64,000 nucleotides of DNA from Perkinsus olseni (lineage: Eukaryota; Perkinsozoa; Perkinsida; Perkinsidae), in the NCBI GenBank assembly GCA_013115135.1, contig JABANP010000248.1, positions 1 to 64,000 on the forward strand, given 5' to 3'. The notes under the pieces are model-generated. The model was not told the origin of the DNA. It saw only the letters and a program-made list of their open reading frames with translations, and ran no database searches. Positions 26,331-64,000 of the stretch are shown here, piece after piece; within the stretch, counting starts at the first letter, position 1, and every line of letters starts with the position of its first letter. A program made the position numbers and the translations under genes.

Positions 26331-27887
26331 TTACTCATCATAGTGCTTCTCGAACTCCACAGCAGCCTCTTTGTCGAGCTTGATAGCAAGTGCACCGACC
26401 TTGTCGAGGTCCTTTATAGGGGCCTTGAAAATAAGGTCTGCTAGCCACGTAGGTTGACCCTCCTCAGGACCCACTATGTGGTCCCCTTCCGAAATCAGGG
26501 GGTGATTGCTGACGACCTCCACACCATCCATGTGGTCCCACTGCTTAGTGAAGGACAAGTCTGAGATTCTCCCAGATCTCAAGGCATTGATAGTCGAGCA
26601 GGCAATAGCATAACGCTGATCTTCAGGTAGCATCACCGGTGCACTGGGGATGCCCACAGACAGAAGCAGCTCCTCGTCGACCAAGTCAACACCATTAGCA
26701 ATCTTGTTCATCATGTGGACCGGTCCTCCCCCTAGTCGGGCGTTCACCTCGATCAGCCTGGGACCCTTGCTAGTGTACTTGCCCTCGACGTGGAAAACAC
26801 CGCTGCTGAAGCCCATAGCAAGTACCGAATCCACAGCCATCTTCCTGAGACCCTCGACCTGGTCCTTAGGCAGCATGCTGGGCATCACGTCCCAAGTCTC
26901 CATGAAGTAAGGCTCAACTGTCGGACCATTGTCGTGGACGGCCGCGTAAACACACTTGCCTTCACACATGACAGTATCAACATCAACCTCGGACCCATCA
27001 AGATACTCTTCGAGCATGAACCCGCCGAAATGCACCTTCGGGCCAGCGGACGCGTCACCGACACCTTCGCTGAACTCACCATCAACCACGACCATATTCG
27101 AGATCATATCGCAAGTCTCATAATAGGTTTTACGGAGATCGTCGAAGTCCGTCACTTTCTTGACACCTTGTGAAGCGGAACCACACAAAGGCTTCAACAC
27201 AGCCGGGAAGCCGACAGTATCAGCAGCACTCTGCAGGTCGTCCTCAGACTTGATCAAGTAGTTCTGTACGCTCGGCAGACCGGCTTCCTTGAGAGCACGA
27301 CGAGCCACGTACTTGTCTCTAGCAGTCATAATAGACTTCTCAGTAGCACAACGAAGACCAAGCTCCTTCCCTATGCGAGACATGGGCTGCAGACAGAGCT
27401 CGAAGAAAGTGCAGATACCATCGATCTGGCAGCCGAGGTCTCTCAAGGACGACACAGTATCGGCCACCACCTGGTCTAGATCGGGCGACATGATGTCCAT
27501 CGGGATGAACTTGGCGGCCTTCCCCTCTTCAACTAGGGACTTGCACCAGGCATCAGGCTCGTCAACTAGGATCACGTTGACACCAAGATCAGAAGCTCGC
27601 TCGTAAATGAAGCGCTTGGCGGGATAACCCGTACCAAAAAACACAATAGTAGAGCCTCGCAGCAACCTCAGTCTCAAGTCTTGCGACTCGACCGTTCTGG
27701 CGGATAACAACTCCTTGGGGACCTTAGGTAGCGTAGAGAAGTTTGCTTCCGGAAAAATGGACGAGGAACAGGTCGACTGGACACTAGCGTCGTCGTCTTC
27801 TTCTGTAGTAGAGGCCATAGACGGCGCTGGACCGTCTAGTTTAGAGTTGGAAAAAGGTAGCTCAGCAGATACTGCGGCTGTTGCCAT
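26331..27887 (-). CDS. ATP-grasp ligase, carnosine-synthase-like
   Basis: A single open frame gives 518 residues from the ATG at 27887 (MATAAVSAELPF). Codons further upstream begin with TTG, and that region looks like a polypyrimidine tract or leader. Central features are FGTGYPAKRFIYERA (N-terminal Rossmann-like part), TARDKYVARRALKEAGLPS (start of the ATP-grasp fold), FPAVLKPLCGSASQGV (ATP-binding lysine and glycine loop), GGFMLEEYLDGSEVDVD and RLIEVNARLGGGPVH (Mg-binding Glu/Asn). This set fits the carnosine synthase/biotin-carboxylase-like branch that joins a carboxylate to an amine with ATP hydrolysis. The actual substrates cannot be named. No targeting signal is obvious after the chosen start. 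Confidence 0.8.
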   Translation of the reverse strand: MATAAVSAELPFSNSKLDGPAPSMASTTEEDDDASVQSTCSSSIFPEANFSTLPKVPKELLSARTVESQDLRLRLLRGSTIVFFGTGYPAKRFIYERASDLGVNVILVDEPDAWCKSLVEEGKAAKFIPMDIMSPDLDQVVADTVSSLRDLGCQIDGICTFFELCLQPMSRIGKELGLRCATEKSIMTARDKYVARRALKEAGLPSVQNYLIKSEDDLQSAADTVGFPAVLKPLCGSASQGVKKVTDFDDLRKTYYETCDMISNMVVVDGEFSEGVGDASAGPKVHFGGFMLEEYLDGSEVDVDTVMCEGKCVYAAVHDNGPTVEPYFMETWDVMPSMLPKDQVEGLRKMAVDSVLAMGFSSGVFHVEGKYTSKGPRLIEVNARLGGGPVHMMNKIANGVDLVDEELLLSVGIPSAPVMLPEDQRYAIACSTINALRSGRISDLSFTKQWDHMDGVEVVSNHPLISEGDHIVGPEEGQPTWLADLIFKAPIKDLDKVGALAIKLDKEAAVEFEKHYDE

Positions 27888-28396
27888 TGTTGAAAAAAGA
27901 AAAAACTGGTCCCATGAGAAGTGAGGCAGCATACCGAGGAAAGGACCGTTGCCTCTCCCAGCGAAAGGAACGCACCAACGAGGACGGTTGAAATGAGGAA
28001 AACAAGCTCGAGGAAATTTACCCAAACACGAGACCGCATGCCCTGTGGTAAGGGTAGTCAGTCTCAGCCGAGACAAGCACTAACAAGAGAGGAACTCGCT
28101 AGAAGCAGAAAGTTCACGCGAACAAGGGCTCAAAACTGTGTGTAGGGTTTATTCCCAACTGGTCTAGCGTTCGAACACAGCGCAAGATTCTTCCGACCAC
28201 TACATCTACACGCTAAGATGCTGTGTGGTCAACTCTACTAAAACACAGCATGTTTGAGACGCATCTACAGTTGCTTATTGCTTGGAGTAAGAAATTGAGG
28301 AGTTGCAAGAGACAGCAAGATGAGCAAGATTCCTATCGCAACAACAACCGCAGGTCGGGAAAAGTAAGCAATCCTCGTAGTGTTCCCCTCCGCCCA
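27888..28396. other. Divergent intergenic region
   Basis: Lies between the ATP-grasp gene (-) and the VAP gene (+), so it must hold both promoters. No specific motif is recognised. Part may be 5' UTR or leader exons. Confidence 0.4.
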
Positions 28397-29084
28397 ATGT
28401 CCACGCTAGTCACCGTGAAGCCTGATGAGATAAAGCTGCCTACAACTTTGCATCAGTCGGTAACAACAATACTCAGGCTCGACAACAACAGCAAGAAGCA
28501 CTCTGTTGCGTATAAAATCAAAACAACAGCCCCTCGCAAGTACCTCGTCCGCCCTTCCAGCGGCCTCATGGGTCCCGGGGAATCAGCGGACATTCAGATC
28601 ATTCTGCAACCTCAAGCTACGGACCCTTCCAACGACCAGCACGACCGCTTTCTCGTCCAGTCCGCCGTCTCCAAGTCTGGCCGGCCTCTTGACCGTGAGG
28701 ACTGGGGCAAGCTTGATAAGGCCGACATTGAGGAACAGAAGATTCGTGTTGCCTTCAAGGCTACGGCTGATGCCAGTGATGCTACCGCCGCTCCCCCAGA
28801 GGGCGCTGGTGATGCGACTGATGATCTCCGTGCTAAGTACGATGAACTAATTCAGTACACACTGAGCGTGGAAAAGGACAAGAAGAGATTGGAAAAGGAA
28901 ATTGAAGCTGTGAGTTTGGTCTCGTAACGGTTCGATCGTGGTGTTGCCACTTCACTGGCAGGTGAAGCAATCAAGCACAAAAGCCGCACCTACCGGATCC
29001 GCAGGGTTCTCGACCACAGCCCTTCTCACTAGCATCACTGTTGCTGTTATCATCGCCAGAGTCGCTCCATTGTTTGGTTATTAA
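28397..29084 (+). CDS. VAMP-associated protein (VAP), tail-anchored
   Basis: Two exons, 28397-28909 and 28962-29084, around a 52-nt GT-AG intron give 211 residues. The start MSTLVTVKPDEIKLP is chosen because the MSP domain begins there; upstream codons are out of family. The MSP fold occupies residues about 4-125 (TTILRLDNNSKKHSVAYKIK, then YLVRPSSGLMGPGESADI, the region that binds FFAT peptides). A coiled coil follows (DDLRAKYDELIQYTLSVEKD). The second exon supplies the C-terminal transmembrane anchor (TALLTSITVAVIIARVAPLF). VAPs sit in the ER membrane and tether other organelles and lipid-transfer proteins. Length and order match the family. The intron carries a GGTTCGATC word. Confidence 0.93.
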
Positions 29085-44702: not shown

Positions 44703-45136
44703 ACCGAAAAACGCGTTGCGAATTTTCCTCCGATGATAGGAGGCAGCCGCTAGCGACGCTAGCCTAGCGTCAATGACGCCGCCGTTGTCCCTGAACGTCC
44801 GTTTTCCTCGAGCCAAGGAGCAAGCTCGAGCTTGCGAAGCCGTGATTAGCGCATCTAGAGCCGTCGAGCGAGCCGTTTGTATCAGTAAGGGGGCATAGAC
44901 ATATGCCGCAGACCATGGAATAGAGCTGACACGGACGGGCTGGTACAGAAAGACTGTTGGCATCAGCGCGCGGCGTCGTCATGCACGCAAGAACGATCTC
45001 CTCATAGCTGTTGTCGACTCAGCAAGCTGAGCTGCGGAGATACTTTCGATTAGAGATGTTGAATCGCCCCTTCCGCTAGATAGAGCCATGGTTGATCTCC
45101 TCTTACCATAGTTGATAAGAAAAGCAGTATCTCTCA

Positions 45137-46807
45137 ATGTGCACAGCCATCTTCTATGCAAGCTCCCTCCTGCTGAGCTCCCTCGCCAGTACAACCGTGG
45201 GGACCCCTCACTACTACGAGTTTCAGCTGGAGACCAGACGCCATTGCATCGAAGGTCTTCGAGATGCCCAAGGGAGGCCACCAGCTTGCAGCAAGTCTAT
45301 TGCTATGGAGACTGCTGGTCTCACCCTGCCCGGTATGGAGGATGGCACCCTCACAACAAGGTCTCATTTCATTATCGGCAGCGATGGGTCGGAAACTACT
45401 GTAGAAGCTCATCCAAGCTACCCTTACCAATACTTCCTGCGATGCTCGACTGAAAAGACCGTCACCGTGGAACGCCTCACCAATGCAAAAGCACTCTTCG
45501 TTGGGAGTACCTCTTCTGGTGTTGATGGCCGTCCTGCTACGCTATCCGACTCCACGTCGCTGGAAGATGATGGCTGGACCTTCATCGGGAACATGAAGAA
45601 GGATGGTGTTGAAGTTAACAAATGGGTTAAGATGAGCTTCCAAGGTATGGACAACTCGACGGGCTTCAACTATTCGTCTATGCACATGGCAAACCTTGCA
45701 CCGGATACCTGGACCCTATACATGGACGACAAGAACGAAAAGCCGCTGAGTATCATAGCCACCAACGGTAGGCATGGTCATGTGGTCCACCAAGAAATGC
45801 GCCTCGTTAACTTTGAGAAGAAAGAAGGTCTGATGCCCTCGGAAGAAGCCCGTCACCGCTTCCTCGACTTATATCAGATCGAAAACGATGAAGGCTCTAA
45901 CTCTCTCCTGTCTGCTGTTGGTACTGTGGAGGAGCACGGTGAAAGTTTCTCCAATATGCGTGAGAGTCTGCTTTCCGGCTACATTCCCCCTGACCCTGAT
46001 GCGCTTATTGAGGCGGTTGACTGGATACCACGCCGTCGCCTACGCTCCTCCCAAGTCATACCCTATTTCGCCGTCGAAGATGGCACAGCTGCTGCTGCGT
46101 ACTTCGATAGGCTTGGGTCTCGGAGGCAACTACTGACTGTGTTCAAATTTCAGTACCCTCCAACGTGCGCAGACAGTGCCCTCAAGGACAAGTTTTGCCT
46201 TTTCGTCAAATTGGATGTTGGCGGCGAGGGGTCTAGTGCCGCGCTAGATATGGATATGACTCTTCCTGACGTCCACAACCCGAGACGGAAGGCCCAACTC
46301 TCTCTGTCTGTCGCGCTTGCGTTCCACCCAGAGAAGAAAAACTTAGCGCTCTCTCTCAGTGTAGAGGCGTCGGGCTGTGCTGTTCTATGGGAGCTAGGCG
46401 AGGGTATCTCAATCTCTATAACGGTGTGCTTGGCAGGTAAGGGCGGTGTGAAGTACGACAACAGTACTCTGTCCTTCGAGGCGTTTATCGAGGCCTCGAT
46501 CTCTCTTGATCTTAACTTGCCGGTCGTCGGTAGCATCATTGACGCGACGATCATCGGTCGAATTGGATGCACTGCGGGGCCCGAGAACACCGTTACGGCC
46601 TATGGGAAGCTTGGCGTCAGCCACTCAGTCGTTATAGCTGGTGCTAGCATCACGTTTGACATCGTGGCCTCTACTGTTGACCATCTTCCGAACAAGTGGG
46701 AATTCTCTTCTGGAGTCACTCTCTCTGCCTGGATCAACCTCATCTTCTGGTGGCCAAGATGGAGTCACAGATATCTTATTTGGTCTGTAGGTCCTGTCAC
46801 TTTTTAG
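45137..46807 (+). CDS. Large secreted lineage-specific protein (556 aa)
   Basis: One intronless frame from the ATG at 45137. The first 22 residues (MCTAIFYASSLLLSSLASTT) form a signal peptide. The body has several N-glycosylation sequons (for example NST and NYS) and many beta-type segments: residues about 60-260 contain SHFIIGSDGSETTV and ALFVGSTSSGVDG, and residues about 340-556 contain KFCLFVKLDVGGEG, LSLSVALAFHPEKK, ISISITVCLAGKGGVKYD and SISLDLNLPVVGSI. The amphipathic strand pattern suggests a large beta-rich extracellular protein. It is not a family I can name. A truncated, frame-broken copy of its middle part lies at 47882-48085. Confidence 0.7.
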   Translation: MCTAIFYASSLLLSSLASTTVGTPHYYEFQLETRRHCIEGLRDAQGRPPACSKSIAMETAGLTLPGMEDGTLTTRSHFIIGSDGSETTVEAHPSYPYQYFLRCSTEKTVTVERLTNAKALFVGSTSSGVDGRPATLSDSTSLEDDGWTFIGNMKKDGVEVNKWVKMSFQGMDNSTGFNYSSMHMANLAPDTWTLYMDDKNEKPLSIIATNGRHGHVVHQEMRLVNFEKKEGLMPSEEARHRFLDLYQIENDEGSNSLLSAVGTVEEHGESFSNMRESLLSGYIPPDPDALIEAVDWIPRRRLRSSQVIPYFAVEDGTAAAAYFDRLGSRRQLLTVFKFQYPPTCADSALKDKFCLFVKLDVGGEGSSAALDMDMTLPDVHNPRRKAQLSLSVALAFHPEKKNLALSLSVEASGCAVLWELGEGISISITVCLAGKGGVKYDNSTLSFEAFIEASISLDLNLPVVGSIIDATIIGRIGCTAGPENTVTAYGKLGVSHSVVIAGASITFDIVASTVDHLPNKWEFSSGVTLSAWINLIFWWPRWSHRYLIWSVGPVTF

Positions 46808-48085: not shown

Positions 48086-48539
48086 GTCACGTCGAATCCG
48101 ATTTCACTAATTATAGTTTCGTCTTCTTGAAAAAGCCTTCATTGTACCAAATGAGGTGTGCTTCATGCATTAAGTTGAGTGAAAGCGTGAAGTGTTGAGA
48201 GGTTCTTGAAAAAGGAATGCTAAGTCGGTCATCATGCTCGCCTAGACGGGTATTGAGCGGTGTTCGGAAGCCGCATACAATCTAATGGTGTCACCGGGTT
48301 GCAGAAGTGCTAATAATATTCTGATATCAAAGATATTACGTCATATATTTCTTGACCAAAGGAGAATTCTTACAGTATCTGCTGAGAATAGACAGGGATG
48401 TGTTGTAAATGATGCTTTCTGGACTCGAGTGTCGAGGTGGCTTATCCATTGGCATTCTCACAAGTTGTGAGTCAGCGTTGTGTTTCAGCATTCGCGTTCT
48501 TCTCGTGTTGATTGGGAATTGGAGTGCAAAAAAAGTGCT

Positions 48540-48760
48540 GCGGGCAACGAAATCGAACACCCCATTTGCGAAGTTGAATTTTCCAGTGCCGCGAAATTGA
48601 AGGTTCCAAGGACCGCTCACGAATATTGAAAGTTCGAATGTGAAATTGAAGTTCCTTATTGCGAAGTTGAAAGTTCCATCATGTCGAAATTGAACTCACG
48701 AAAGGCCAACGTGCGGATTCGAAAGTCCCACCTGGAAATTGAATGTTCCACGTGCGGAAT
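48540..48760. repeat. Degenerate tandem repeat, GCGAAATTGAAAGTTCC type
   Basis: At least eight imperfect units of about 18-25 bp built on GAA(A/G)TTGAA(A/G)GTTCC. Confidence 0.65.
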
Positions 48761-51087
48761 AGATATTCCCGTGCGCGGTCGCGGGGTGAGCCTTGCAGGA
48801 AGAACGCGGAATAGACGTCGACCCCGCGTAGAGGAGCGAAGGTAGTGAAGTGACCGCTGCTGGCAACGCCTGAATCCTCAATAGAGAGAGAGTTCACGTC
48901 CATCTATGAACCCAACATCACAGTCGTTAATACCAATACTTCTATAGCTATCTATAGCTAGCCACGTGCACTAGTCGTAGCAGAGACACAGCAGACCAGA
49001 GCTAGTACGTACGATCCACAACCACAATACGTAGCAACAGTACGAACCAACGATACTAACTTAGTAATACGAACCACAGATGCGAACAGAACGGTTCAGC
49101 CTCTGCGTGGCCGTTACGGATACGTTGAAACCGTCGGATACGTCGGGCGAAGATACTGATCTTGCGCACTCGTCGTTCCTTGGCTCACGTTAACCGCGGT
49201 GACCGCGCGCCCGTTTCAGATTCGTACATCCAACATCGAACGAGGTAATGTGATTATCGGTCGGAAACCCGTAAGTGTGGAGCCTATACTCAAGCTCTCG
49301 GGCCGGGTTTTCGACCTGTTAGTCCTCACCCCACACTCCCGAATCGGGAGTCCCGATCGACTGAGTTATTAATCGAACGACTCCGGAAGCGACTCTTGAC
49401 GCTGTGATAAGTTAGCGCCGATAACCTTTTGAGGAAAGAGGAGGAACGCGAGGGAGAGGGAAGAGGAGTTTCTCAAATGAGCTTGTCTTGACGCATTCAC
49501 AGGAGAAGTACGATATAATATAGCCTTTCAATACTTTTCAGCACAGGCGGAGTTGCGCAGGAGTATGGAGCGCAGCCGTCGGAATGAAGCGGTTGCCTAG
49601 GGCGTCGTGAGGATGAGCTGGGTGAGTCTCGGGAGACATACTCACACCAATAATACTAATATCTGGTGGATCGGGAGATATAATAAAGTTCATGGGCCTG
49701 GTTGTCGACCTGTAAATCCTCACCGAGCGCTCCCGAACGACTGGTTGGACGAAGGTTGGAGCTCATGCTGTTTACCTTGGCCACTTTTGCCTCGGGCACT
49801 GCATCAGAGGTTTTCAAAGACCCACACCGCAAACCCGAGTATGCAAATAGCTTCACCGAAACTTCATATCGAGACGTCGCCTCATGCATTCTGATGGTCG
49901 ATCCGACCGACATTAAGTAGTAAGTACGATCACGAGTAAGATTAGCACACTTTCAGCGTGTGTGCTTGGGAGATAAGACTCAGAGAGTTTTTCCCAACTT
50001 GGAAATCCCAAGCGCTCGACGGTAATCGAAAAGGTGACGCGTTGTTATTCTATTATACTGTGCACCCGAATGCTGACCGCAAGCCCTTCGCCCGGGTGTA
50101 GCAGATGGGATAACTTGAGTTGATACCCTTTTCTCGGCTCTATCAGGAGCCTTGTTGCGTTGAGTGTCGCCGCGATTAGCAGCCTGCGACCGTTCCGCGG
50201 GGAAGGGGTGATTCATAAAATCCAAGGGAAAGGTACAAAATCCAAGGAAGCACTTTCGGGGATCTTGTTGCCCATGGCAATAGTTCGGGTTTCTGGCTGC
50301 CCTGGGTAACAGTTCCGGGATCGGGTTGCTCGGTCGGGTTTCGGGAGGGGTTTCGGGTTACCCGTTCCTGCCTTCACCCGCAGTTCAGGGTTTTTTCTGT
50401 CGCCTTTGCCTCCCTGTTGCACGCGCTTCCTTGGATTTTGTACCTTTCCCTAGGATTTTGTACTTCACCCCGCGGGGAAGACATGTTATGAAGGGTGATT
50501 CAGCAAGGTGTGGAGTGATTTCGCAGGCCAGTTTTTCGCTGAGAAGTGGGCGTTTGGCTCCCAAGGCTCAGAAGGATGAGCCCAGTGCTATGAAAAATTC
50601 AACTCCGCAGTTTTACGTGTTTTTGTGGATTTTGGCGTGAGTAACACCTCGTAACGAGCCCCAGGGAGGAGCGCACCTCGCTGAGACACCCCTAACAACG
50701 ATCCGCTCGTAAGAAGATAACGCACCTATCATCTAGGAACTGAGCTGGGCTGGCAAGATATCATGGAGGAAGATATTCCTTTCGCTCGCAACGCAACGCT
50801 ACGCTTCACTTCACACTGAATACAGTTGCGAATTATTGGGCGAGCGATTTTCACCATGAGCTTCTCGGCGAGCGAGAATGTAATCTTTTTCTCCGATCTC
50901 TATCCTTCGCCATCATGCTTGAACTTCCTCGGTGTAATGTGCAAGGGGTAACTCGGTGGTACCGGGCCCGGGTGAGTCTAGAATTCTGTGGTACGGTCGG
51001 ATGCTCGCTCGAGGCTCTTGACGTTCCTACCAGCTCTGCGTTCCATATTTCTACCGATAGTTCCTTGTTACATAGTACTCGTCTGAG
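48761..51087. other. Gene-poor 2.3 kb
   Basis: No recognised gene. About 49305-49360 and 49690-49740 share a GGGCC(T/G)GGTT(T/G)TCGACCTG...TCCTCACC block. An inverted-repeat element occupies 50195-50480. Confidence 0.5.
50195..50480. mobile_element. MITE-like element with about 40-bp terminal inverted repeats
   Basis: The left arm at 50214-50252 (AAAATCCAAGGGAAAGGTAC, AAAATCCAAGGAAGC) matches the reverse complement of the right arm at 50423-50463 with about three mismatches in 40. The similarity extends outward through GGGGTGA to CCGCGGGG. The interior of about 170 bp has no ORF and is GGGTT/CGGG rich. Size and structure suit a non-autonomous DNA transposon. A target-site duplication was not clear. 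Confidence 0.75.
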
Positions 51088-52684: not shown

Positions 52685-55600
52685 ATGTCGCGGTGTCGCA
52701 TCGCCCCTCAGGCGACTAGAGCCCTCCTGCCGTCAGAGGCCACCAGCATGTGCGCCGCCAGCAGTCATCGGATAAGCCCTCTTGCTATCAAAGCCAAGGT
52801 CGATACTCCCGAGAAACTGTATGAGTGGTTGAAGAGATGCAAGCATTGCAAACTGGTAGTATTCCTTGTCACAGTGATAGCACTGCGATAGTCTCGTCGG
52901 AATGCGCTTGCGAGGTGTAGCGGCTTGTGCGAGGACTTCAGAGTTCCTCATTACGCTGCCTGAGGTCTTCCGTTGACCAGGTTAATACCAAGGTCCCAGA
53001 GCTAGGCTGTGAGATTGTCGATGTTAGCATGCTCAAGCGGAAGTCTGAGGATAAAACGTAGGAGGGATAGGAGGGGTGAGTGGGGAAATACCATTTCCAG
53101 GTATTTGAAAAATGACCTTCTACACTGTCTTTTGCGGAGGGGCCTGTCTCTGGCAGTAACCACGAGCGAAACCAACAAGAAAAGGAGGGTCGAGGTAATA
53201 GGAATCTCCCAGGATTTTACCAGCGTTGAAGTTGTAGGAAGAGGCTGATGATGGTTCCCGCAGTGCTTCTACAGAGGAGGTGGCCAAGGTGGTCCTGTTG
53301 AGGCAAGGCTTGCCAAAGTTCTTCGACATTGATGTGGATAAGGATTTCGCTGGTACGACAGGGAGACAGTTCATTCAAGGATCGCTGCTCTTGCTGTGAA
53401 GTATCCGCGTTTCTCGAGGGTGCGTGCAAAGCCTGTTTATTTCCTCTATTCTGACCATATTTCCACCAGAAGTCTTTTTGCCATTTTTTAGTCTTCTAGA
53501 TACTGATGAGCCGTCGTGGCTCCGAAAACGGCTGGCGAAGCGATGGCCGACGAATTTGTATTTACTGGACAAGGCGAACGGCGAGAATGCACAGGTGCCC
53601 GAGATGGCGTTTGGTGCCCTTTTGGGAATTTATGGGTTCCTAGGTGTCGTGGTCGGAGGAGTTCTCGGCCTGGGTCATTTGTTCTAAGAACGTCTCGCTC
53701 GTCGCAAGAGAGCTGGCGGACATTCACCGGTATGAGGGCGGAAGTCCCGAGTTCGATCCCCGGCATTGGTATTTTTGGCAGGTTTAAAAGCGATCGATTC
53801 GAGTATGCAAAACTTGTTGCAGCGGCGTGGTTTGAAGAACTGCAGAAGCTCGAGCGGATCGGCACTTTGGAAACGGTATTAGCTGTGCTGCATTCTGTCT
53901 TTAACCATGATCGACCTAAGATTCGGAAGATCCTCTCCCACCATACGCTGGTCGGTGAGCTCTGCGGCAGAAGTGGAGTGCAGCACATAGTGAAGTACAA
54001 CAGCCAAGGCCTTAAATGGTGAGGAGCCTCCTTGGCCGGGGGTGCTGGAGTTTGCTGCTAGGTACGCCCTCGTTGCGAACGTGTGCGGTGCCGAGTCGGC
54101 CTGTGTAGCCCCCGCTGACACACTGACGATTCTCAAGGCATGTGGCCTCACTACGATAGAGGAGGTAGACTGGTAGAGTATCTTAGGTCGAAGATGGTTC
54201 CTCACAGGTTTGCCCGGCGAAGGCAGTGGAGCTGCGGGAGGATGACTGGGATAGCATGAGCAACGAGATAGCTGCTGTGAACCAGTCCGAGATGCATGAT
54301 GTGACGACTCTCGAACACCTCATCCATTGCCAGCGAGAAGGGGTAGTTGCTTACTTTGAGAATCGGAGGTCTGAAGGCGATGGTGCGGTAGTAGTAGTGG
54401 CTCTGGGGAAGGCCAAGACAGCTCAATACCGGCTCTTGCGGAAATTGCGGGAAGTGACGAAGCAGGCTACTCGAAAGCGGCAAGATGGTAAAGTCTTCAA
54501 GCAGACTTGCGAGATGATGCTGAGCGGGAATGCTCGGAAAAATGAGCTGCTAGCGCTCTTCTTGGAGCTCTTCCGAAGGGTTCAATACGTGGTCAGAGAG
54601 GATATCGACGGTTTTGGAGCATTCGAAGCGGTGGACCAGCGGTTCCCGGAGTTGTTGGCTCTGGCTGTGCGGACAGAAGTGGTTGATGATGCGAAAGAGG
54701 CAGCGGGAAGGGTGGTAGTGATCCATGCGCCTCCGGGTTCGGTACCGAAAGGGATGCTCACTGATGACTTTGTTCTGCACCCTGACAAGGTTAGGAAGAT
54801 GCTCGTCCGCGGCAGCCATGTTGTGCAGCTTCCGAATATATTGCAGCTGAGGGGTCTTAGTAAGCTCATGCGGCATCGCGTGAAGGTCATTCGGTACGGC
54901 TGGGAGGGGCAGGTGGGTGATGTATTGAACCGTGCGTTGGAGCGAGGGAAGGGAGAGGACCTCTACGAGACGGATAAGAGGTTCTTCGATTCTCCTATCG
55001 ACAAGCAGTGCGCTCTTATCGGGAAGTGGTACGAGACGCTGGACAAGATTGCTATTCCTGGCGTACAGCAGACCACTGTGGGCACGGCGGAAGAACTCAG
55101 GGCGGCGGTCGAGAAGCTCCTGTCGGGTGAGTTTGAGGAGCCTGAGGGAGTTGGGGAAGCGCAGAGGGTCTTCGTGGTGGCGCCGATCGGAGTGCCGGGC
55201 AGTGGCAAGACTCGGCTGTTGAAGGAAGTGTTCGCTAAGCTGGCAGTGGCGCACGGGAAATATCGGCAAAATTTGGTTGATGAGAAGAGCGAAGCAGCAG
55301 CAGGGGCGAATGTGTGGGATGCTCTGTACTTGAGCAGTGATGAGTTCGCTGCTAGAGGGAAGGGCGATCAGAGACGGCAGAATGTGGAGATGAGAAGGGC
55401 CAGCGAGGCGTTCTCGAGGGAGAGCATCGGGCGAGCGCCGAAGGGGTCGACTCACGTGGTGTTGGTGGATAAGAACCATATCCATGCTGGGGATTTGAGG
55501 GGAAGCGCGTCGCCGTTCATGAAGGCCAACGCGCAGGTTAAGGTGATAGCGTTATTCCTGGCTGACACTGATGATGCTGAGGGAGAGGAGAAGGTGTGGA

Positions 55601-56520
55601 ATTACCCATGGAGCCCGAAGACGATGGCAGTTTGCTTGAAGAGGGTCTTGGGGAGGGGTGCCCACCCGACGCTTGGCAGTGATGCCAATGATGATCGCAA
55701 GAAGGCCTCTGTATTCCTCAAGTTTTGGAGGCTGTTCGAGGATCATGCAGGCCTGCAGCAGAACAAGTTGATATCTTCGGTCTTGACCTTGCCCATAGTG
55801 AACAGCGGGAGTTGGAGGGAGGATGGCACCAGCCTCGCGAAGGAAGTGCTGTCGAGCGTGCCTGGACGGAAGGATCGGAATCGATGGAACTTTGAAGTCA
55901 GCGAGGAGGTTCTGGCAAAAATGCAGAAGCTGACGGCAATGGTTGAGTGTGATGAGGATTCCTTTGCTGAGTCTGATCGGTGCGGCGAGGCCGTTGTGCA
56001 GAAGGTGGAAGCTCTTGCGGCGGAGTGTCATTGGCCGCTGTATGTGGGAGTGGATATTTCGGGCCCTAACAGAGAGGTGTTGATGAAGCACACGATGAGC
56101 TTCCTCGATGCCAGCCAGTGGAGTATGAAGGAAGAGCTTCACGTGACTCTGTCGTTTTTGGGGTGTCGGGAGCCCGAGGGTGAGAGAAGGAAACAGATTG
56201 TGCAGGCTATTGCCATGGGGGAGGATATGATGGCTACGGTCTCACCGAAGAGGCTTTTAGTGGTCCCAGGAAGGTTGGTCTGTGCCGAGGTTGAAGTCGA
56301 TGGTCCCGGGTTCCTCGACGACTTGCAGCCTCAGCCGCACCTTCACATCACCATGGCCCTGGACAATGGCTGCCCTGCCAAGTTAGCTAGAGAGTACCTC
56401 AGTGGCTTTCATGAGCAACGGGGAGTCATTGAAGGCACACAGTTGACTGACATTCAAACTTATCAATTTCCTGATGAATTACGTCTTACTGATTGCACGA
56501 TTAAGAATTACTTCAAGTGA
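52685..56520 (+). CDS. TRL1: tRNA ligase (ligase-kinase-CPD), copy A, apparently catalytic
   Basis: Nine exons close in frame: 52685-52855, 52981-53057, 53101-53194, 53238-53352, 53500-53594, 53644-53729, 53782-54018, 54062-54164 and 54208-56520, giving 1096 residues. Adenylyltransferase motifs in order: RQGLPKFFDID, LLDKANGEN (motif I, Lys177), WVICSKN, LVGELCGRSGVQHIV (Glu272), REGVVAYFE (Glu370) and KAKTAQYRLLRKLREVTK (Lys394/396). A 130-residue module of unknown function follows (VVIHAPPGSVPKGML). The 5'-OH polynucleotide kinase has P-loop GVPGSGKT (Lys660) and VLVDKNHIHAGDLR. The C-terminal 2H phosphodiesterase has HVTLSFLG (His971) and HLHITMAL (His1039). The order matches fungal/plant tRNA ligases, which heal and seal 2',3'-cyclic-phosphate and 5'-OH ends in tRNA (and UPR mRNA) splicing. 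The ligase part is intron-rich; the rest is one exon. The exon 4-5 join is the least certain. Confidence 0.9.
53730..53781 (+). other. 52-nt tRNA ligase intron with T-arm-like sequence
   Basis: Runs GTATGA to TTGGCAG and contains CCGAGTTCGATCCCCGG, a T-arm with one mismatch. Removing it is needed to avoid a TAA, so it is a real intron rather than a tRNA gene. Confidence 0.65.
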
Positions 56521-56794
56521 CGTTTCCGTCGAGTGTCGCTACTGTGTTACCACCAGTATGACCGATCCGGACGACAGACGAGCTTGGTAGTAGGCTCATG
56601 GGCTCAGTCGGCTTGTTTTGACCGCGTCACTCCAAAAGGAATGGAACGCCCGAACTGGCTTATCACGAGAACAGCATTGCCACAATCAGCTGTTGAGGTT
56701 GGGGCTGCCTTCGGACCTGGACGCCTCGTCCGCCAGCATTGCGTACTCCCATAGCATCAAGCGACATCAAGATTGACTAATCCCCGATTGATTC
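56521..56794. other. Short spacer between tRNA ligase copies A and B
   Basis: 274 bases. No feature recognised. Confidence 0.4.
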
Positions 56795-59700
56795 ATGTCC
56801 TCTGTCTCTTCGCAACCGGTCGTGGGCGAAGGGGCTGAGCCGATTGCTGCTGATGAGGTGATACGCTCAATGCTCTCTCACACGAATCAGGACAGACACC
56901 CTCTAGCTGTCCGTGAAGGAGTCCAGACGCCCCAGCAGCTCCTCGAGTGGGCGGAGAGGTCTAACAAGTGTGAATTGGTGAGAGGCCTCCCGAAGCCTGC
57001 TGAGCGTAATAGCTCCGCGCGTCGTTTTAGATTACCCAGAAAGTCTCGGGCTGCCCCTGCGATCTGGTCCATATAAGCCCTATACTCGCGAGAGCCAATG
57101 ATGGGTATGTCTCAAATTAGCGATCAAGATGCTTCAATATGATGGTGCTCAGGTCCAAGGGAGATCGCGTTCGTCAAGCATTGGTCGGGCTCTGGTGTCA
57201 CCCTAGCTGTCTCCAAAGACGCGGATATAGGGAACAAGAAGCGCAAGGTTGGTTCGACGGTTCGATACGTTACGCCCTCTCTGATCGCGATTGCTTGTTG
57301 TGGAATCGGCGGATTTGCCCCGGTTGTGGATGATTCGGTCGAGAACTTCTAGAATGCAGAGCCGCGGTTTTATGATAGTTACGGTATCATCGCGGACAGT
57401 GCGGCGTGGCCTCTGCAATAACGCCATTCCGCTCCGCTGCACTCATCAGAATGCGCAGACCTGATTCAGCGTTCTCGCCTTCGGATCTCTTGGGAACTCG
57501 TGAGCGGAAAACAGAAGCCGAGATTTCCGATGTGGTGGAGCATCGTCGTGATATTCATAGTGCAATCGTTGCACCGCAATCAAGACCGTGCTGAACGGGC
57601 GTTGTAGAAGCATGCTGAGAGCAAGTCAAGAATACCTCATCTGTTTCGCAGGCTGACGTTGACAGCACCGAAGGATCCCCTAGGTGGTTGTGAGGCAGAC
57701 AGCTCTACCGATGCCCTTCTCCTGATGAAGCGAGCGCCGCTGAGTGCAGGTGCAAGTTCAAGTAAGTACCGACAGTCTTAGTGACCTCGCCCATGGTATT
57801 CTCAATAGGGATTGGCTTTATGACCGCCATGGGCAAGGCGACGGAGGAACTCAAACACTGGCCCTTGCGGGTGTACGTGAAGGACTGCCCAGAAGGAGAG
57901 CCGGTGGCTGTAAGCGTGGCGGTAGACTGTCTACCGTAGACAAGCTCTGGCGGTTCACTATCTCCATGCTCATCGTCATACTCGGTGCCGTCTGGTGCCA
58001 TCGCCTATTGATCTCTTCAGCTCGGTCGAGGAGCTCTTCCTCGTCATTGGCTGAGCATGGTATGTGTCTCCTCAGGTCACTTGGTGCGAACGTTTCGACT
58101 CCTGGCTAATACATGCCGGCAGAGCATCAGTGTTACTCAAGGAGGAGGAGGATGACACCATTGAGTAGGTGACCGAGTCACACAGCGGTCGATCGGGTGG
58201 CCTGACGGCCCCGCCTGGCACCTCAATTCAATTCCACTTCTCAGCAACACTGCCAACGGTTGCGGTGAGGCTCGCATGGTCGCTGCTGCATGGTCCAGAC
58301 TACTACTCAGAAGAGACCATTCTTTGGTGAGCCCGTCAGCACTTTTTGAGGAGCCTAGCCTGTCGCACTGTGTGGCTGTGTTTATTCTTAGCACGCGTTA
58401 TCAATCGTTCGGCTCGTGAGCTAGAAATCAACGTCATGAGCTTCCGTCGCTAGCGCGCGATGACGTGGGCGTCCTGATCGTACGCGCTCGTTTTCCCCAG
58501 TCTTTCTGGCTCGCTTCGAGTAATGACTGGAGAGAAATTACTCATCTCAGCTTCCGGGAAATTGTTACCAAACCTCGTCCTTCGAGAAAAAATCCGGTCG
58601 AGATCGCGTAGATGTGAGTATGCCCCATTATCTCAGCTGAAACGGCTCCTGAGTAACTTCACTCTCACTGGCACCCTCCACCGTCGTGATGGACCGAAGC
58701 CGTTATCGAAAACCGAGAGATTCGGCTTCGTCTGGTAAGATGCTGCTGAGCAGGCAGCGGTACGGCCCAGATGCCGTTACTCAGGCACGGTCTCATTCCG
58801 AAGCAGCTTTCATCGGTGAGTCCTTGTGTTGACCCGAAGACGACAGCTTCTGTGCTGCAAGCCTGTGGCCTCGTGGAAGCCTCTGACGATGAGGTTAGGA
58901 GTGGTGGGGATCGTGGGCGCTTTTTGTGAGTGTGATAGAACTCGGACTCGAACGTTCGCGTTCAGCTATCGCACGGAAGTGAAACATATCTTCACTGGTC
59001 TGCCGTATCTTAGTCAGCATTGCTGGCTTAGACACACACTGCAGACCTGTTCTCTCAGGGAAACGGTTTGCGTATGAAAGTCGTTCATGATAAGGAGGAG
59101 CTCAGAGAAGCACTGAGAGAAGCCTACTTCGCCGGAATCCCGGATTCATCCGCGGCCGGCAACCTTGACCAGTGCCAGAATGCTTGTACGGCCATTTACC
59201 TCTGCACCGACGAGGAAGAACCCTCGCGAGTTCTGCTGGTTGACTTCTCGGAAACAGCAAAATTCCAGCTGCTCAGTGCGATGCGCCACGACTTGTCCGC
59301 GCTAGCGGGCCGTGGTCTGAAGGCCCAGACTGGAGTGAAGCGCTTCAGGCGGCAGTGCGGGAGAATCCTAGACGACCAAGTGGGAAGCAGCTACGCATTC
59401 GAGGCCTACGTGGCTCTGTTCAAGAATATTGCGAACGTTGCTACTGCTGCGGGGCAGTGGAACAGCGGAGCTTTGCATGGGAAGTTCTTAGAGTTGGCGC
59501 ACAAGGCGGCGGAGAGTTCCGACGAGGCCCCGAATAAGAGCTTGGTTGTCTTGATCCATGCCCCTCCGGGTATCGTGCCCGCCGACATGCTGACTTTCTC
59601 GATTGAGGTCGATTTCACGGGCACCCTTAGTGACATGGTGCGCAGGGGTGGCAGGCACGTTGCTCGTACGCGGGATATTTCCTTTATGAAGCAGCGCCCC

Positions 59701-62199
59701 GAGGAGGAGGAGATCAAAGTGATCAGTGTTTCTTGGGACGGCAGCGTCGACGATGTTATGATGAGATCCTTCGAGACGGCCGGTCGGATGAATCTCTGTG
59801 ATGCTGATGTGAAGTTCTTCGAGATGGACCCGGAGGATCAGGTGGAGGAGATAACACGCTGTTATCACATAGCAGCGAGGGAGAATGGCAGGGAGAGGGA
59901 TTGGGTCCGAATGGCCTCATCGGTCGAGGAGTTGCCTGAGATTATTGGGCAATTCGAAGCCGAGCAGAAGCAGCAATGCCGAACCGAAACATTGGGGAAG
60001 GAGTGTCGTATCGTCCTCGTCGATGCTCCGCCGGGCTACGTGCCACACGAGCTGATTACTGATAATGTGGTTACCACCGTCGAGACCATCGAGAGTCTCC
60101 GCAGGGGTGGCGGCAAGCATGTACTGTATGCGCCTGGGTGGGCTGGAGGCGCGCCTGTGACCGGGGTTGTGAGGATTGGCTGGGACAGGCGAATCGGCGA
60201 CATCCTCAATAGCTCGACGAAGCGGGCCAGGTGGAACAAATCTCATAAATACCTGCTAGAGGAAGAGCGACGTTTCGCCTCGGCGAAGCTCGGTGAGCAG
60301 AGCGGCCTTATTGGGGCATGGTTTGCTCAGCAGAAGAAGGAGATCCCTGATGCCTCGTCCGTCGAGACGGTCTCGGACAAGGCAAGAATGAAGACGGCTA
60401 TAGCCCGGTTGTTGCGCAATGGGGCGCCTGTGAGAGGGAAGCCGATGGCGGCGGCCGAAGAAAGCCTCCCTGAGGATGTCGCAGCGGAGCAAGAATTCGA
60501 GGAGGGAGAGGAGGATGAAGATTCGCTATCACCGGGTCCCTCAGCAGCACCCAACCCAGGTGACCATGTCGCATCTTTCGAGAGCGTGGATGAATCACCC
60601 GTGATCGAAGCTGAGGTCGTCGACGATGAGAGCCCACCGGATACTATCATGACTGTAGCAGACGAGGCCACTGCGGTTAAGGTGGATGACTCTGCCGCAG
60701 TGGATGGATCAGCGTCGTCGTCACCGGCGAGCCCGCCAGAAAAGTCGTCGTCGTCTGTGGTGGAGGCCAAGGTCGTTGCTCCGACTGACGGCCTCGTGGG
60801 TGATGAGGAGGCCGTCACTGCCATTGACACGGTCGCTGCCGCAGAGCGGCCTCATGAACAGGTGACCGCGCCATCACAGGAGTCCGCCGCCGCCGGCACC
60901 GAGAGCGTAACGGCGAGAGTCGAAGAGACGAAAAGCAGGAGGGGCATGGTTGTGATCATCCACGCACCTCCAGGAGTGGTACCGAGAGATCTGCTGACGG
61001 AAGACGGGGTTCCTGGGGAGAGGCAAATCCAGAAGCTGTTAGACGACGGTGATGATCATATTGTGCATGCGTGCACGGTGGGCTTCCTATTCCGATTCAA
61101 GTTCCCCCACGAGCGAGTGGCTGTCGTTAAGTACGGCTGGGAAGGGGCCATCCAGGACGTCATCACTCGGACTCTAGCTCATGCTGGTGATGATGATAAG
61201 TCGACGCAGGACGAAAGATTCTTCGCGTCTGATATGAGCGAACAAGGAGGGCTGTTCGCGAGGTGGTATAAACAAGCGTCGAAGAAACCACCGAGAGGAG
61301 TGAAGACGGCGAGCCCCGCCTCAGAGAAGGCTCTGCGTGATGCTGTACACAGGATGCTTGGCGACACGCCGAGGGCGTCCAGAACCGTCCTCCTCGTCCT
61401 CCCGCTCGGGCTGCCAGGCTCCGGGGCGAGCCAACTTTTCGGGACTATGTTCGACAAGCTCAAGGTGAAGAGGGCGAAGCTCCTGCAAGGGAAGAGTCGC
61501 GTGGAGGACGATGGCTGCTCGGACGCCGTCGTGAGTAATGCCGCTCTGATCAACGCCAGGGACTTTGCTAAGAAGGGCGCTATGGACAGCACAGCCTTGG
61601 GGGCTGCCTTGAGGAGGGCCAGCGGTGACTTCGTCGAGCGCAACGTGAGGAGATCAAAGCAGGGGTCGACACATGTCGTCTTTCTTGACTTAAATCACAC
61701 CAGCACTCACAGTGTCAAGGCATCGGCCAAGAACTTCATGATTAACGGTGTCGATGTGAAAGTCTTGGCCTTGTTCATGGCAGAGGTCCCGGGCACAGAG
61801 TTGGCGAGCTGGCAGTACCCGTGGAGCCCTCAGGGGATACTCTCCTGCTTGAAACGGGAGATCGATTCCCACGGTGACTCTGAAGGTTTCGACTCCCGAA
61901 TGACTGAGCACTTCTTCGAGCTTTGCAAACGGTTTGAGAAGTACAAATGCCCGCAGACCAGCAGGCTGATCAGAGAGGTCAAGCGGGTGCCGATAGTTCA
62001 GCCTGTTGCAGCCGTGGATGGTGAGGATGCTCGCCGTGGATTGGAGAAACTCCTCAACGTCAGAGGGACTTTTTCAGAAGAAGACTTACAGCAGGCCAAC
62101 GACCTCGCTGGTATGATCGAGTCCCCGGCAGAGTTCGAGATGTCCAATTTGGATTCGATATCCGATGAGATTCTGAGTAGAATCGCTGCCATTGCTTAG
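56795..62199 (+). CDS. tRNA ligase paralog, copy B (pseudoenzyme)
   Basis: Exons homologous to copy A: 56795-56977, 57031-57104, 57153-57247, 57695-57761, 57809-57909, 58076-58164, 58245-58326, 58637-58734, part of 58760-58915, and a large last exon 59059-62199 (ATG available at 59074, 1041 codons open). The third exon has one extra base relative to copy C, so the 5' frame is broken as written. Every ligase motif is altered: KANG is CPEG, ELC..H is TLH..P, EGVV is CTAI and KAK is SET. The APPG module occurs three times (about 59540, 60005 and 60945). The Ser/Glu-rich linker spans 60460-60930. The kinase P-loop reads GLPGSGAS with no lysine, and DKNH is DLNH. The protein ends where copy A's phosphodiesterase begins. 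It could be a regulatory or scaffolding pseudoenzyme, or only the 3' ORF may be expressed. Confidence 0.8.
59540..61340 (+). repeat. Three APPG modules within copy B
   Basis: Protein-level repeats of about 120-130 residues starting near 59540 (VVLIHAPPGIVPADML), 60005 (IVLVDAPPGYVPHELI) and 60945 (VVIIHAPPGVVPRDLL). Each is followed about 60 residues on by a G-W-(D/E)-G-x(2-3)-D-(V/I)-type word and then by a (R/K)FF or RRF word. Copy A has one (about 54710-55120). I do not recognise the fold. It starts like a P-loop beta-strand but lacks GKT/S. Confidence 0.75.
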
Positions 62200-62547
62200 G
62201 AGTCTTAGACTTCATTACGTAATTACTCCTGGTCTTAAACTAAGCCGTTCCTTTCTCTCATCCTAACGTATTTTCTGCTATGAACGTTCCATATTCGGTT
62301 GAGTTCGGTAGTGATGAACTGCGACCCGCTGACGAGGAAGCAGCTACACCGTTAGCCAACGTATGGGACCCTACCGATACCGCGGTCAACACTCACGCTC
62401 GCTCGCCTGAGGAGGATCTCCTGTCAACCTGCCACAGTTGACGGCGGTCCGAGGTCGGCAATTCCTCCAGGCCGTCTCAGATCCTTTAGTCTAGTCAGAT
62501 AACTCGCTCCAGCTTCCCTTTGAGATTGGCTGTTCACCGATTGATTG
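62200..62547. other. Spacer between tRNA ligase copies B and C
   Basis: About 350 bases with no supported gene; probably UTR and promoter of copy C. Confidence 0.4.
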
Positions 62548-64000
62548 ATGACATCCTCTCCTCCATCCTTGGAACCGCTCGTGAACACAGCCACGGGTCC
62601 GCCCCTCACCGAGCTGATCTCCACAATTCTCTCACGCCCAAGCCTTGATAAGCACCCTTTGGCTGTCGAGGAAGGAGTTGACACGCCTGAGCAGCTCCTT
62701 CAGTGGGCTGAAAAATCACCCAAATGCGAAGTGGTAAGCATCCTACATAGTCTACTTAGTGATGACCAGCTGAGTTCGAAGGCCCAACCTGTCTCAGGCA
62801 ACCCTGGCAGTTCCCGGCAAACCATATGATCTGGTCCAGGTCATCCCTGTTCTTAAAAGGGCAAATGATGGGTAGGCTTTAGAACCACTTGTATGTGATC
62901 ATCAAGAAGAGCACCCTTGTCTCACTAACAGTGTGATGCAGGCTAACAAACTCCACATCAGGTCCCGTGGTGATTCTTTCCGCCGAGCACTGATCGCTTC
63001 CGGTGTCACTCTAGCTGTGCCTTCGGATCGCGCTGATAAAGTAGAGGAGAAAAAGCGGAAGGTGAGTGCAGTTTCGATGCTCCGCGTGGATCATCGTCCG
63101 CGTTAAGTGAACAGTCAATCGTAATCCGTTCTGAAGAAGGAATCTTAAGTCGTGTGTTGGCCTCCACCCTTCGAGCGGCCGTCACGCCATTATTCCATTG
63201 CAGATTTGAGGGCGGTTGTAGATGATAGAAGTTCCCTGGTTCTTGCGTAGGCTCCAAGCTCGCCAGATGACAGTGACTTTACTCATGAGACCAGGGAGAC
63301 GCTTCTGCTGATGAATGGTCCGCCGCTTAACGCTGATGCAAACCCAAGTGAGTACCGCCACGGCCGACAGCCGTCACCCTAGAAAACGCTCTCCTCAGGT
63401 ATCGGCTTCATGCAAGCCATGGGTAAGATGGCAAAAAACCTGAAGACACAGCCAATGCAGCTTTACACGAAGGAATGTGCGGAGGGCGAGCCTGTGGCTG
63501 TAGGCAATGGTCGCGCTGTTGACGCCTCCCGACGATACACGCCGTTTGGCATCCTCCTCTTTCACTGTAACCGCAGAGCTCTCCGTCGGCTATGCTGAGT
63601 CAGCATCACCTGTCGACTGAGGGTACTCATTGCTACTCGTACCTCCTATTAACTCTGAAGTTGTTTTCTGATGGTCACGTCCCTTAACGATTTAGCATTC
63701 GGGTGAATCGCATCTGTGAATAGCCGATTACTTCAGGTCACTTGGTGTGCTCCTCTCGATTCCTGGGTCATCAATTCCGGTGGCTTTTCCCTGTTGGTTA
63801 AGGAGGGAGAAGATGTGTCTGAGTATGCTCCAACACCTAAGAATTCGGCCATTGCCGTCTCTTTTACATGACGTAGCCGATTCAGTTACGCTGATGACAG
63901 TAGCCATCACAAAGCAATCGTTGCTGCATCTGCCTGGTTCGAGCTGCTGTCCGGGAAGGATATTGTTTTGGTGAGTCGTTCGAGCCGCCGCGGTGCTCCT
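62548..64000 (+). CDS. tRNA ligase paralog, copy C (5' part; runs off the window)
   Basis: Seven exons close in frame: 62548-62733, 62798-62871, 62962-63061, 63251-63347, 63399-63499, 63737-63822 and 63877-63970; a GTGAGT donor then leads out of the window. Start by ATG at 62548, directly comparable with copies A and B. Shared words include HPLAVEEGVDTPEQLLQWAE, YDLVQVIPVLKRAND, SGVTLAVPSD, GFMQAMGKM, LYTKECAEGEPVAVTWCAPL, DSWVINSGG and AIVAASAWFELL. The lysine of motif I is replaced: LYLLDKANGE in A aligns without gaps to LYTKECAEGE here, putting Cys at the lysine position and Glu at the Asn position. No frame disruption is visible, so this looks like an expressed inactive ligase domain. Whether kinase and CPD follow cannot be seen. 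Confidence 0.8.

What the first reader, a model, noticed from the sequence alone, without database searches (positions are those of the whole stretch)
52685..64000. Tandem array of a tRNA ligase with two paralogs that have lost catalytic residues
Three head-to-tail genes share the same exon plan. Exon lengths 74/74, 101/101 and 86/86 recur between copies, and splice phases match. Copy A retains all ligase, kinase and phosphodiesterase motifs; B and C do not. Fungal/plant-type tRNA ligases are normally single-copy housekeeping enzymes, so a local family of pseudo-ligases next to the active gene is unexpected. It could mean regulation of RNA repair, competition for broken tRNAs, or heteromeric complexes.
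Basis: partly seen in the sequence, partly recalled or inferred. Interest (0 to 1): 0.92.

Follow-up and report, generated by a model that had tools for sequence, protein, structure and literature searches.

The report
Tandem inactivated copies of tRNA ligase
Next to what looks like a working RNA-repair enzyme (a tRNA ligase), this single-celled eukaryote keeps a row of related genes that have lost the enzyme's key catalytic residues yet still look preserved by selection, so they probably serve as non-catalytic partners or RNA binders.

Summary
Gene A (52685-56520) is a 10-exon, 1081-aa ligase-kinase-phosphodiesterase. B (56795-62199) and C (62548-67827, running past the window) share its exon plan: 9 of 9 intron phases match. 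A keeps KANG, GELCG, EG, KAK, a kinase P-loop and two HxT motifs. In 4 of 4 open B-type copies examined (B, C, and b1, b3 on contig C328), 6 of 6 catalytic Lys/Glu are replaced, the P-loop reads GSGAS and the phosphodiesterase domain is gone. A ~150-aa module present once in A occurs three times. Selection looks real: dN/dS is 0.30-0.34 in 6 of 6 pairs, and between C, b1 and b3 exons are more alike than introns and exon indels are multiples of three. D, a kinase-phosphodiesterase without a detected ligase part, lies downstream; C328 holds four B-type copies, one frameshifted and one cut by the contig end. The genome also has Tpt1-like, splicing-endonuclease and two RtcB-like genes. I read B/C as selected pseudo-ligases; a partner or scaffold role is inference. 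Expression, activity and relatives could not be tested. The organism is probably a Perkinsus species.

The parts
52685..56520 (+). Gene A: tRNA-ligase-like, 10 exons (52685-52855, 52981-53057, 53101-53194, 53238-53352, 53500-53594, 53644-53729, 53782-53875, 53921-54018, 54062-54164, 54208-56520), 1081 aa
   Evidence: open frame, GT-AG; Pfam RNA_lig_T4_1 E=1.7e-4 at residues 136-363, below cut-off
53571..53573 (+). A: Lys177 of ligase motif I (KANG), the expected nucleotidyl-lysine
   Evidence: sequence, alignment; motif definition Kx(D/H/N)G from PMC6592678 (passage)
54676..55128 (+). A: single copy of the ~150-aa 'HAPPG' module between ligase and kinase
55189..55212 (+). A: kinase P-loop GVPGSGKT
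   Evidence: sequence; sub-cut-off AAA/P-loop hits
56029..56517 (+). A: C-terminal 2H cyclic-phosphodiesterase-like domain with HVT and HIT motifs (start approximate)
   Evidence: TIGR02258 E=0.0014, below its cut-off; motifs
56795..62199 (+). Gene B: 10-exon paralog, 1343 aa, ligase and kinase residues lost, no phosphodiesterase domain (56795-56977, 57031-57104, 57160-57247, 57695-57761, 57809-57909, 58076-58164, 58245-58326, 58637-58734, 58785-58893, 59059-62199)
   Evidence: acceptors of exons 3 and 4 chosen to keep the frame
57886..57888 (+). B: Cys codon at the position of the motif I Lys (CPEG for KANG)
59527..59985 (+). B: module copy 1
60001..60438 (+). B: module copy 2
60913..61359 (+). 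B: module copy 3, of B's three the one closest to A's copy
61408..61431 (+). B: degenerate P-loop GLPGSGAS (Lys-Thr of the P-loop replaced by Ala-Ser)
60916..62333 (+). 3' part of B and its flank, 95% identical to C while the earlier part of exon 10 is about 56-81%: homogenised by conversion or unequal exchange
   Evidence: dS about 0.1 here against 0.8-1.7 before it (B/C)
62548..64000 (+). Gene C, part inside the window: exons 1-7 (62548-62733, 62798-62871, 62962-63061, 63251-63347, 63399-63499, 63737-63822, 63901-63970); exons 8-10 lie at contig 64254-67827
63476..63478 (+). C: Cys codon at the position of the motif I Lys (CAEG)
55564..55744 (+). A-D conversion tract (three blocks 88-95% identical to D; the 16 blocks outside both tracts are 52-73%)
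56164..56404 (+). second A-D conversion tract (four blocks, 82-98% identical)

Best explanation
A is most likely a working healing-and-sealing tRNA ligase (ligase, kinase and cyclic phosphodiesterase on one chain). B-type genes arose from an A-like gene by tandem duplication, lost the phosphodiesterase domain and the catalytic residues of ligase and kinase, and tripled a module that lies between them. They were then amplified and kept by purifying selection as non-catalytic proteins. The likeliest mechanism is that the retained ligase and kinase folds dock on RNA ends or on A (and D), with the three modules as extra binding surfaces, making an RNA-repair or tRNA-splicing assembly in which A supplies sealing, A/D supply end healing, and B/C supply scaffold or regulatory surfaces. 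Shown here: gene structure, homology to A, residue loss, signs of purifying selection, amplification, conversion. Inferred: the direction of change (A-like ancestor), that A is active, that the dead folds still bind RNA or A, and the scaffold role.
For: Shared 10-exon plan with 9 of 9 phases. A has a sub-cut-off RNA_lig_T4_1 match and the KANG, SKN, GELCG, EG, KAK, P-loop and two HxT motifs. In 4 of 4 open B-type copies, 6 of 6 catalytic Lys/Glu are replaced, the P-loop is GSGAS and the kinase SSD is NAR. Selection: whole-gene dN/dS 0.30-0.34 in 6 of 6 pairs of B, C, b1, b3; dead ligase parts 0.19-0.40; dead kinase 0.11-0.34. Between C, b1 and b3, coding indels are 9; 6 and 9; 6 nt, non-coding ones of mixed length, and exons are 95-96% against introns and flanks 90-93% identical. 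Pathway partners in the same genome: Tpt1-like 2'-phosphotransferase, tRNA-splicing endonuclease. Precedent for inactivated enzyme domains kept for complex assembly: non-catalytic RNase III domains of KREPB9/KREPB10, essential for editosome association (PMC5770545, abstract).
Against: No expression, interaction or activity data. b2 carries a frameshift early in exon 10, and B needs acceptors in exons 3 and 4 that are not those of C, so some copies may be decaying. The linker between modules 2 and 3 is only weakly constrained (dN/dS 0.38-0.69). C, b1 and b3 are close and the array exchanges sequence, so their pairs are not independent. The module's fold is unknown, so its binding role is a guess. 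Two RtcB-like genes offer another RNA ligase, so A need not be the main tRNA ligase.
Confidence: 0.45

Rival explanations
1. B-type genes have a new activity: the nucleotidyltransferase fold was re-tooled, with the shared Cys at the old Lys position and the CxEGEP stretch as part of a new site.
For: Cys, Glu and GEP at and after motif I are identical in B, C, b1 and b3; dN/dS below 1.
Against: The other five catalytic ligase Lys/Glu and the kinase P-loop Lys are lost as well; I know of no chemistry of this kind (recalled); four related copies give little power.
Confidence: 0.12
2. B/C bind broken tRNAs or A without making a working complex: they are dominant-negative or sequestering regulators of RNA repair.
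For: Same ligase and kinase domains as A without the catalytic residues, and more B-type copies than full-length A-type ones among the matches on C166 and C328.
Against: No expression levels or RNA-binding data; the tripled module suggests more than simple competition (inference).
Confidence: 0.2
3. The B-type copies are a decaying, homogenised gene family (pseudogenes or near-pseudogenes) with no present function; the low dN/dS reflects past selection and conversion.
For: b2 is frameshifted, d is a fragment, B needs altered acceptors, and the array is recombining.
Against: Among the close copies C, b1 and b3 dN/dS is still 0.30-0.32, and 4 of 4 exon indels counted over their three pairs (not independent) keep the frame; C, b1 and b3 (1368, 1365, 1363 aa) are open throughout.
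Confidence: 0.15
4. Copy number is partly an assembly effect: C328 holds the other haplotype of the same locus, so the true array has about two to four B-type genes per chromosome rather than six. (This concerns copy number, not function, and can hold together with any of the readings above.)
For: C166 ends and C328 begins inside or near the array; one 3-kb stretch tested on each unique side (48001-51000 of C166; 23001-26000 of C328) has no second copy apart from dispersed repeats. Left and right parts of one locus with an unmerged overlap would give this.
Against: Identity between the contigs is 95% over the C/b3 stretch but 83% over D/d and the end flank, low for alleles. It does not touch the A-B-C array itself.
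Confidence: 0.5

Closest known systems
Fungal tRNA ligase Trl1 and plant RNL (ligase-kinase-cyclic phosphodiesterase)
   Same: A has the same domain order on one chain, the KxxG nucleotidyl site, a P-loop and 2H phosphodiesterase motifs, with Tpt1-like and splicing-endonuclease genes in the genome. KxxG adenylation and the three activities on one protein: PMC3400036 (passages).
   Different: A is so divergent that no Pfam model of a tRNA-ligase kinase or phosphodiesterase domain appears, and it carries a ~150-aa module that matched no family. B/C lack the catalytic residues and the phosphodiesterase, with the module three times.
Split RNA ligase systems (amphioxus BfRNL with separate kinase/CPD; T4 phage ligases with Pnkp)
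   Same: D is a kinase-phosphodiesterase with no ligase part detected, as healing and sealing are split there (PMC3400036, passages; D).
   Different: Here the split form stands beside a full fused enzyme and non-catalytic copies.
Non-catalytic RNase III proteins of the trypanosome editosome (KREPB9, KREPB10)
   Same: Inactivated enzyme domains kept, and essential for association with a complex of active relatives (PMC5770545, abstract only).
   Different: A different enzyme family and reaction; no complex has been shown here.
RtcB
   Same: An RNA ligase of tRNA splicing, present in this genome as two gene-like clusters.
   Different: Unrelated enzyme family with other chemistry (recalled; the review PMC13247085 was seen only as a search listing).

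Membership tests
Trl1/RNL-type tRNA ligase (gene A) | Nucleotidyltransferase domain with KxxG and the further ligase motifs | tested here: met
   KANG at 177-180, SKN, GELCG, EG, KAK (names of motifs after I are recalled); RNA_lig_T4_1 E=1.7e-4, 21.9 bits against a cut-off of 28.3
Trl1/RNL-type tRNA ligase (gene A) | P-loop polynucleotide kinase domain after the ligase | tested here: inconclusive
   GVPGSGKT present at the right place, but only sub-cut-off AAA hits and no tRNA-ligase kinase model
Trl1/RNL-type tRNA ligase (gene A) | C-terminal 2H cyclic phosphodiesterase | tested here: inconclusive
   HVT and HIT present; TIGR02258 E=0.0014 and LigT_PEase E=0.04-0.08, all below cut-offs
Trl1/RNL-type tRNA ligase (gene A) | Seals RNA in vitro or replaces a known tRNA ligase | not testable with these tools
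   bench test
Trl1/RNL-type tRNA ligase (genes B, C) | Catalytic Lys and Glu of the ligase motifs | tested here: not met
   0 of 6 kept in each of B, C, b1, b3
Trl1/RNL-type tRNA ligase (genes B, C) | Kinase P-loop GxGKT/S | tested here: not met
   GSGAS in 4 of 4 (B, C, b1, b3)
Trl1/RNL-type tRNA ligase (genes B, C) | Cyclic phosphodiesterase domain | tested here: not met
   frames end before it; no H[VI]T[LM] motif in 4 of 4
Pseudoenzyme (B, C) | Homologous to an enzyme, catalytic residues lost, still under selection | tested here: met
   E of 1e-41 to 1e-53 to A; residues lost; dN/dS 0.30-0.34. That A is an active enzyme is inferred.
Pseudoenzyme (B, C) | Expressed protein with a non-catalytic role | not testable with these tools
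   no transcript or protein data

The most novel reading that the evidence does not exclude
A eukaryotic RNA-repair complex built from one ancestral tRNA ligase: an active ligase (A), a stand-alone end-healing module (D) and an amplified, recombining family of inactivated ligase-kinase scaffolds with a tripled module of unknown fold (B/C).
Probability: 0.3. Interest if true: 0.82.

Novelty: new variant of a known kind. Interest (0 to 1): 0.62.

Why it matters
Fungal and plant-type tRNA ligases are essential repair enzymes, and I know of no inactivated paralogs of them (recalled). Two paper searches aimed at this ran (12 of 26 papers listed, 2 of 2) and two on Perkinsus with tRNA splicing or RNA ligase; none of their listings shows such a case. 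Four others failed, and subscription papers are mostly not held. If B/C act with A, they would be pseudoenzymes of RNA repair, parallel to the non-catalytic RNase III proteins of editosomes, and would make it testable why an organism with both RtcB-like genes and a Trl1-like ligase keeps this array.

Tried and rejected
Module as a degenerate copy of the kinase domain: looked possible by eye, rejected for lack of support (12 of 12 module-kinase comparisons at z<=3.0 against z>=10.9 in 15 of 15 module-module ones; hhalign probability 0.3). Structure of the module: AlphaFold mean pLDDT 65, Foldseek 0 hits at E<=0.001. Structure of A exon 10: mean pLDDT 43, not used. Solved structures by sequence: no tRNA ligase hit with either long-exon frame, the A ligase part or the profile of A, B, C, b1 ligase parts. 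Six-frame genome search with RNA_lig_T4_1 found nothing, not even A, whose domain is split over exons, and its controls were silent; not used as evidence. IRE1 RNase family: nothing, but controls silent too, so no conclusion. The genome was searched with the long exons only, so stray copies of exons 1-9 would have been missed. PHROG 'RNA ligase' E=0.008 for the A ligase part and its NCBIfam hits are too weak to use; one B-type ligase part has a chance-level Pfam match to an adhesin domain, E=0.54. No Rfam family and no tRNA in the window. RNA-ligase mentions in two alveolate mitochondrial papers are, in the passages shown, to the ligase used as a laboratory reagent, not to a native enzyme.
Full report
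WHERE IT IS. The window is bases 1-64000 of contig C166 (75009 bases) of an unnamed 61.5-Mb, 968-contig assembly of a eukaryote (spliceosomal-type introns; cytochrome c1 below). It is probably a Perkinsus species: a 69-residue piece of its cytochrome c1 matches PDB 9fq7 and 9fzl over 67 residues at about 134 bits with four differences. That these entries are the Perkinsus marinus supercomplex is my recall; that such a structure was reported is cited in PMC13066397 (passage).

THE GENES. By aligning the 5' regions of the copies I built spliced models. A (1081 aa), B (1343 aa) and C (1368 aa) have ten exons each, nine short and one long. All nine intron phases agree, and junctions fall in the same alignment column at 5 of 9 sites for A/B and 4 of 9 for A/C, the rest within 5 columns. 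On contig C328, mapping C's exons gave b1 (1365 aa) and b3 (1363 aa), open throughout, and b2, open through exon 9 and frameshifted early in exon 10. A further B-type tail (b0) is cut by the start of C328. Downstream of C lies D, an open frame at 72335-73855 that matches A from residue 624 to the end at 66% identity, with kinase and phosphodiesterase. No convincing ligase part was found near D: over 67901-75009 the best matches to the ligase half of A were a minus-strand one at E=0.51 and residues 8-31 at E=1.5. C328 ends its array with a fragment, d. A search of the whole genome with A's long-exon frame gave 21 matches and with B's 10, all on C166 and C328 (the tool calls such counts lower bounds, and exons 1-9 were not searched).

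WHAT A IS. A matches RNA_lig_T4_1 at residues 136-363 (E=1.7e-4; 3.3e-5 when the first 470 residues are scanned alone), below Pfam's cut-off. It has KANG, which fits motif I Kx(D/H/N)G (PMC6592678, passage), then SKN, GELCG, EG and KAK in order, then a P-loop, then two HxT motifs, with a weak match to RNA 2',3'-cyclic phosphodiesterase (E=0.0014, below cut-off). The names of the motifs after motif I are recalled. Ligase, kinase and phosphodiesterase on one chain is the plan of the yeast and plant enzymes (PMC3400036, passages). A against D gives dN/dS 0.14 outside the conversion tracts (311 codons, dS near saturation at 2.0), so the healing half is constrained; the ligase half of A could not be tested this way.

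WHAT B AND C LOST. At 13 motif positions of A, the six catalytic Lys/Glu (K177, K199, E257, E355, K379, K381) are replaced in 4 of 4 copies examined (B, C, b1, b3); G180 and G256 are kept in all four, and S198 and G260 in some. Motif I reads CPEG in B and CAEG in C, b1 and b3; the frameshifted b2 also has CAEG in its open part. The kinase P-loop GSGKT is GSGAS and LYLSSDEF is ALINARDF in 4 of 4; the frame ends before the phosphodiesterase in 4 of 4. A module of about 150 residues (HAPPG...VP...GW) occurs once in A and three times in each of B, C, b1 and b3. Its fold is unknown, and it is not detectably related to the kinase.

WHY NOT PSEUDOGENES. dN/dS (Nei-Gojobori) over whole genes is 0.30-0.34 in all six pairs of B, C, b1, b3. 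In the dead ligase parts it is 0.19-0.40, in the dead kinase 0.11-0.34, and in the linker 0.38-0.69. Over the three pairs of C, b1 and b3, exon indels are 9; 6 and 9; 6 nt, while non-coding indels are of mixed length, and exons are 95-96% identical against 90-93% for introns and flanks. Limits: no significance test was run; dS of B against the others is near saturation in exons 1-9; close copies share history and conversion; b2 is broken; B's exon 3 and 4 acceptors are not those of C, and at the C-equivalent sites its frame is lost.

ARRAY DYNAMICS. The 3' part of B (60916-62333) is 95% identical to C, while 13 blocks before it in exon 10 are 56-81% identical. A and D share two tracts of 82-98% identity; the 16 blocks outside them are 52-73%. 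The genes exchange sequence. One 3-kb stretch on the unique side of each contig has no second copy except dispersed repeats, which fits C166 and C328 being left and right parts of one locus with an unmerged overlap. Whether the overlap is allelic or tandem is open.

PATHWAY CONTEXT. The genome holds a Tpt1-type 2'-phosphotransferase match and tRNA-splicing-endonuclease matches, as a Trl1-type pathway needs (recalled), and two RtcB-like genes.

READING. A is most likely an active tRNA ligase. B/C are most likely selected pseudo-ligases (about 0.85 for that step alone, my estimate). That they act as scaffold or partner of A is the mechanism I think likeliest (about 0.45), with sequestering regulator, decay and new activity as rivals. 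No expression, protein or comparative data could be had here.

Noticed in passing
window 48480-49208 and 50205-50471: Dispersed repeats: 106 matches reported in the assembly, 40 candidates scored, the longer ones at 86-96% identity on other contigs; the second has inverted ends, like a small non-autonomous transposon.
   Followed up: no
window 45119-46804 (+): Single open frame of 562 aa matching all but the first positions of Pfam DUF6740 (E=2.6e-140), function unknown.
   Followed up: no
window 26334-28079 (-) and 28217-28924 (+): Divergently placed ATP-grasp protein (582 aa) and major-sperm-protein-domain protein (236 aa) frames.
   Followed up: no
G000 contig C423, 86913-88838 and 90864-92465: Two RtcB-like genes on one strand about 2 kb apart, in the same genome as the Trl1-like ligase.
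   Followed up: no
contig C166 68564-68714 (in L001): A short tandem repeat between C and D; the stretch is 21 bases longer than the equivalent one on C328.
   Followed up: no
contig C328 8498-8728 (in L034): b2: a B-type copy with a frameshift early in exon 10 while a later 974-residue frame stays open; possibly an assembly error or a recent loss.
   Followed up: partly
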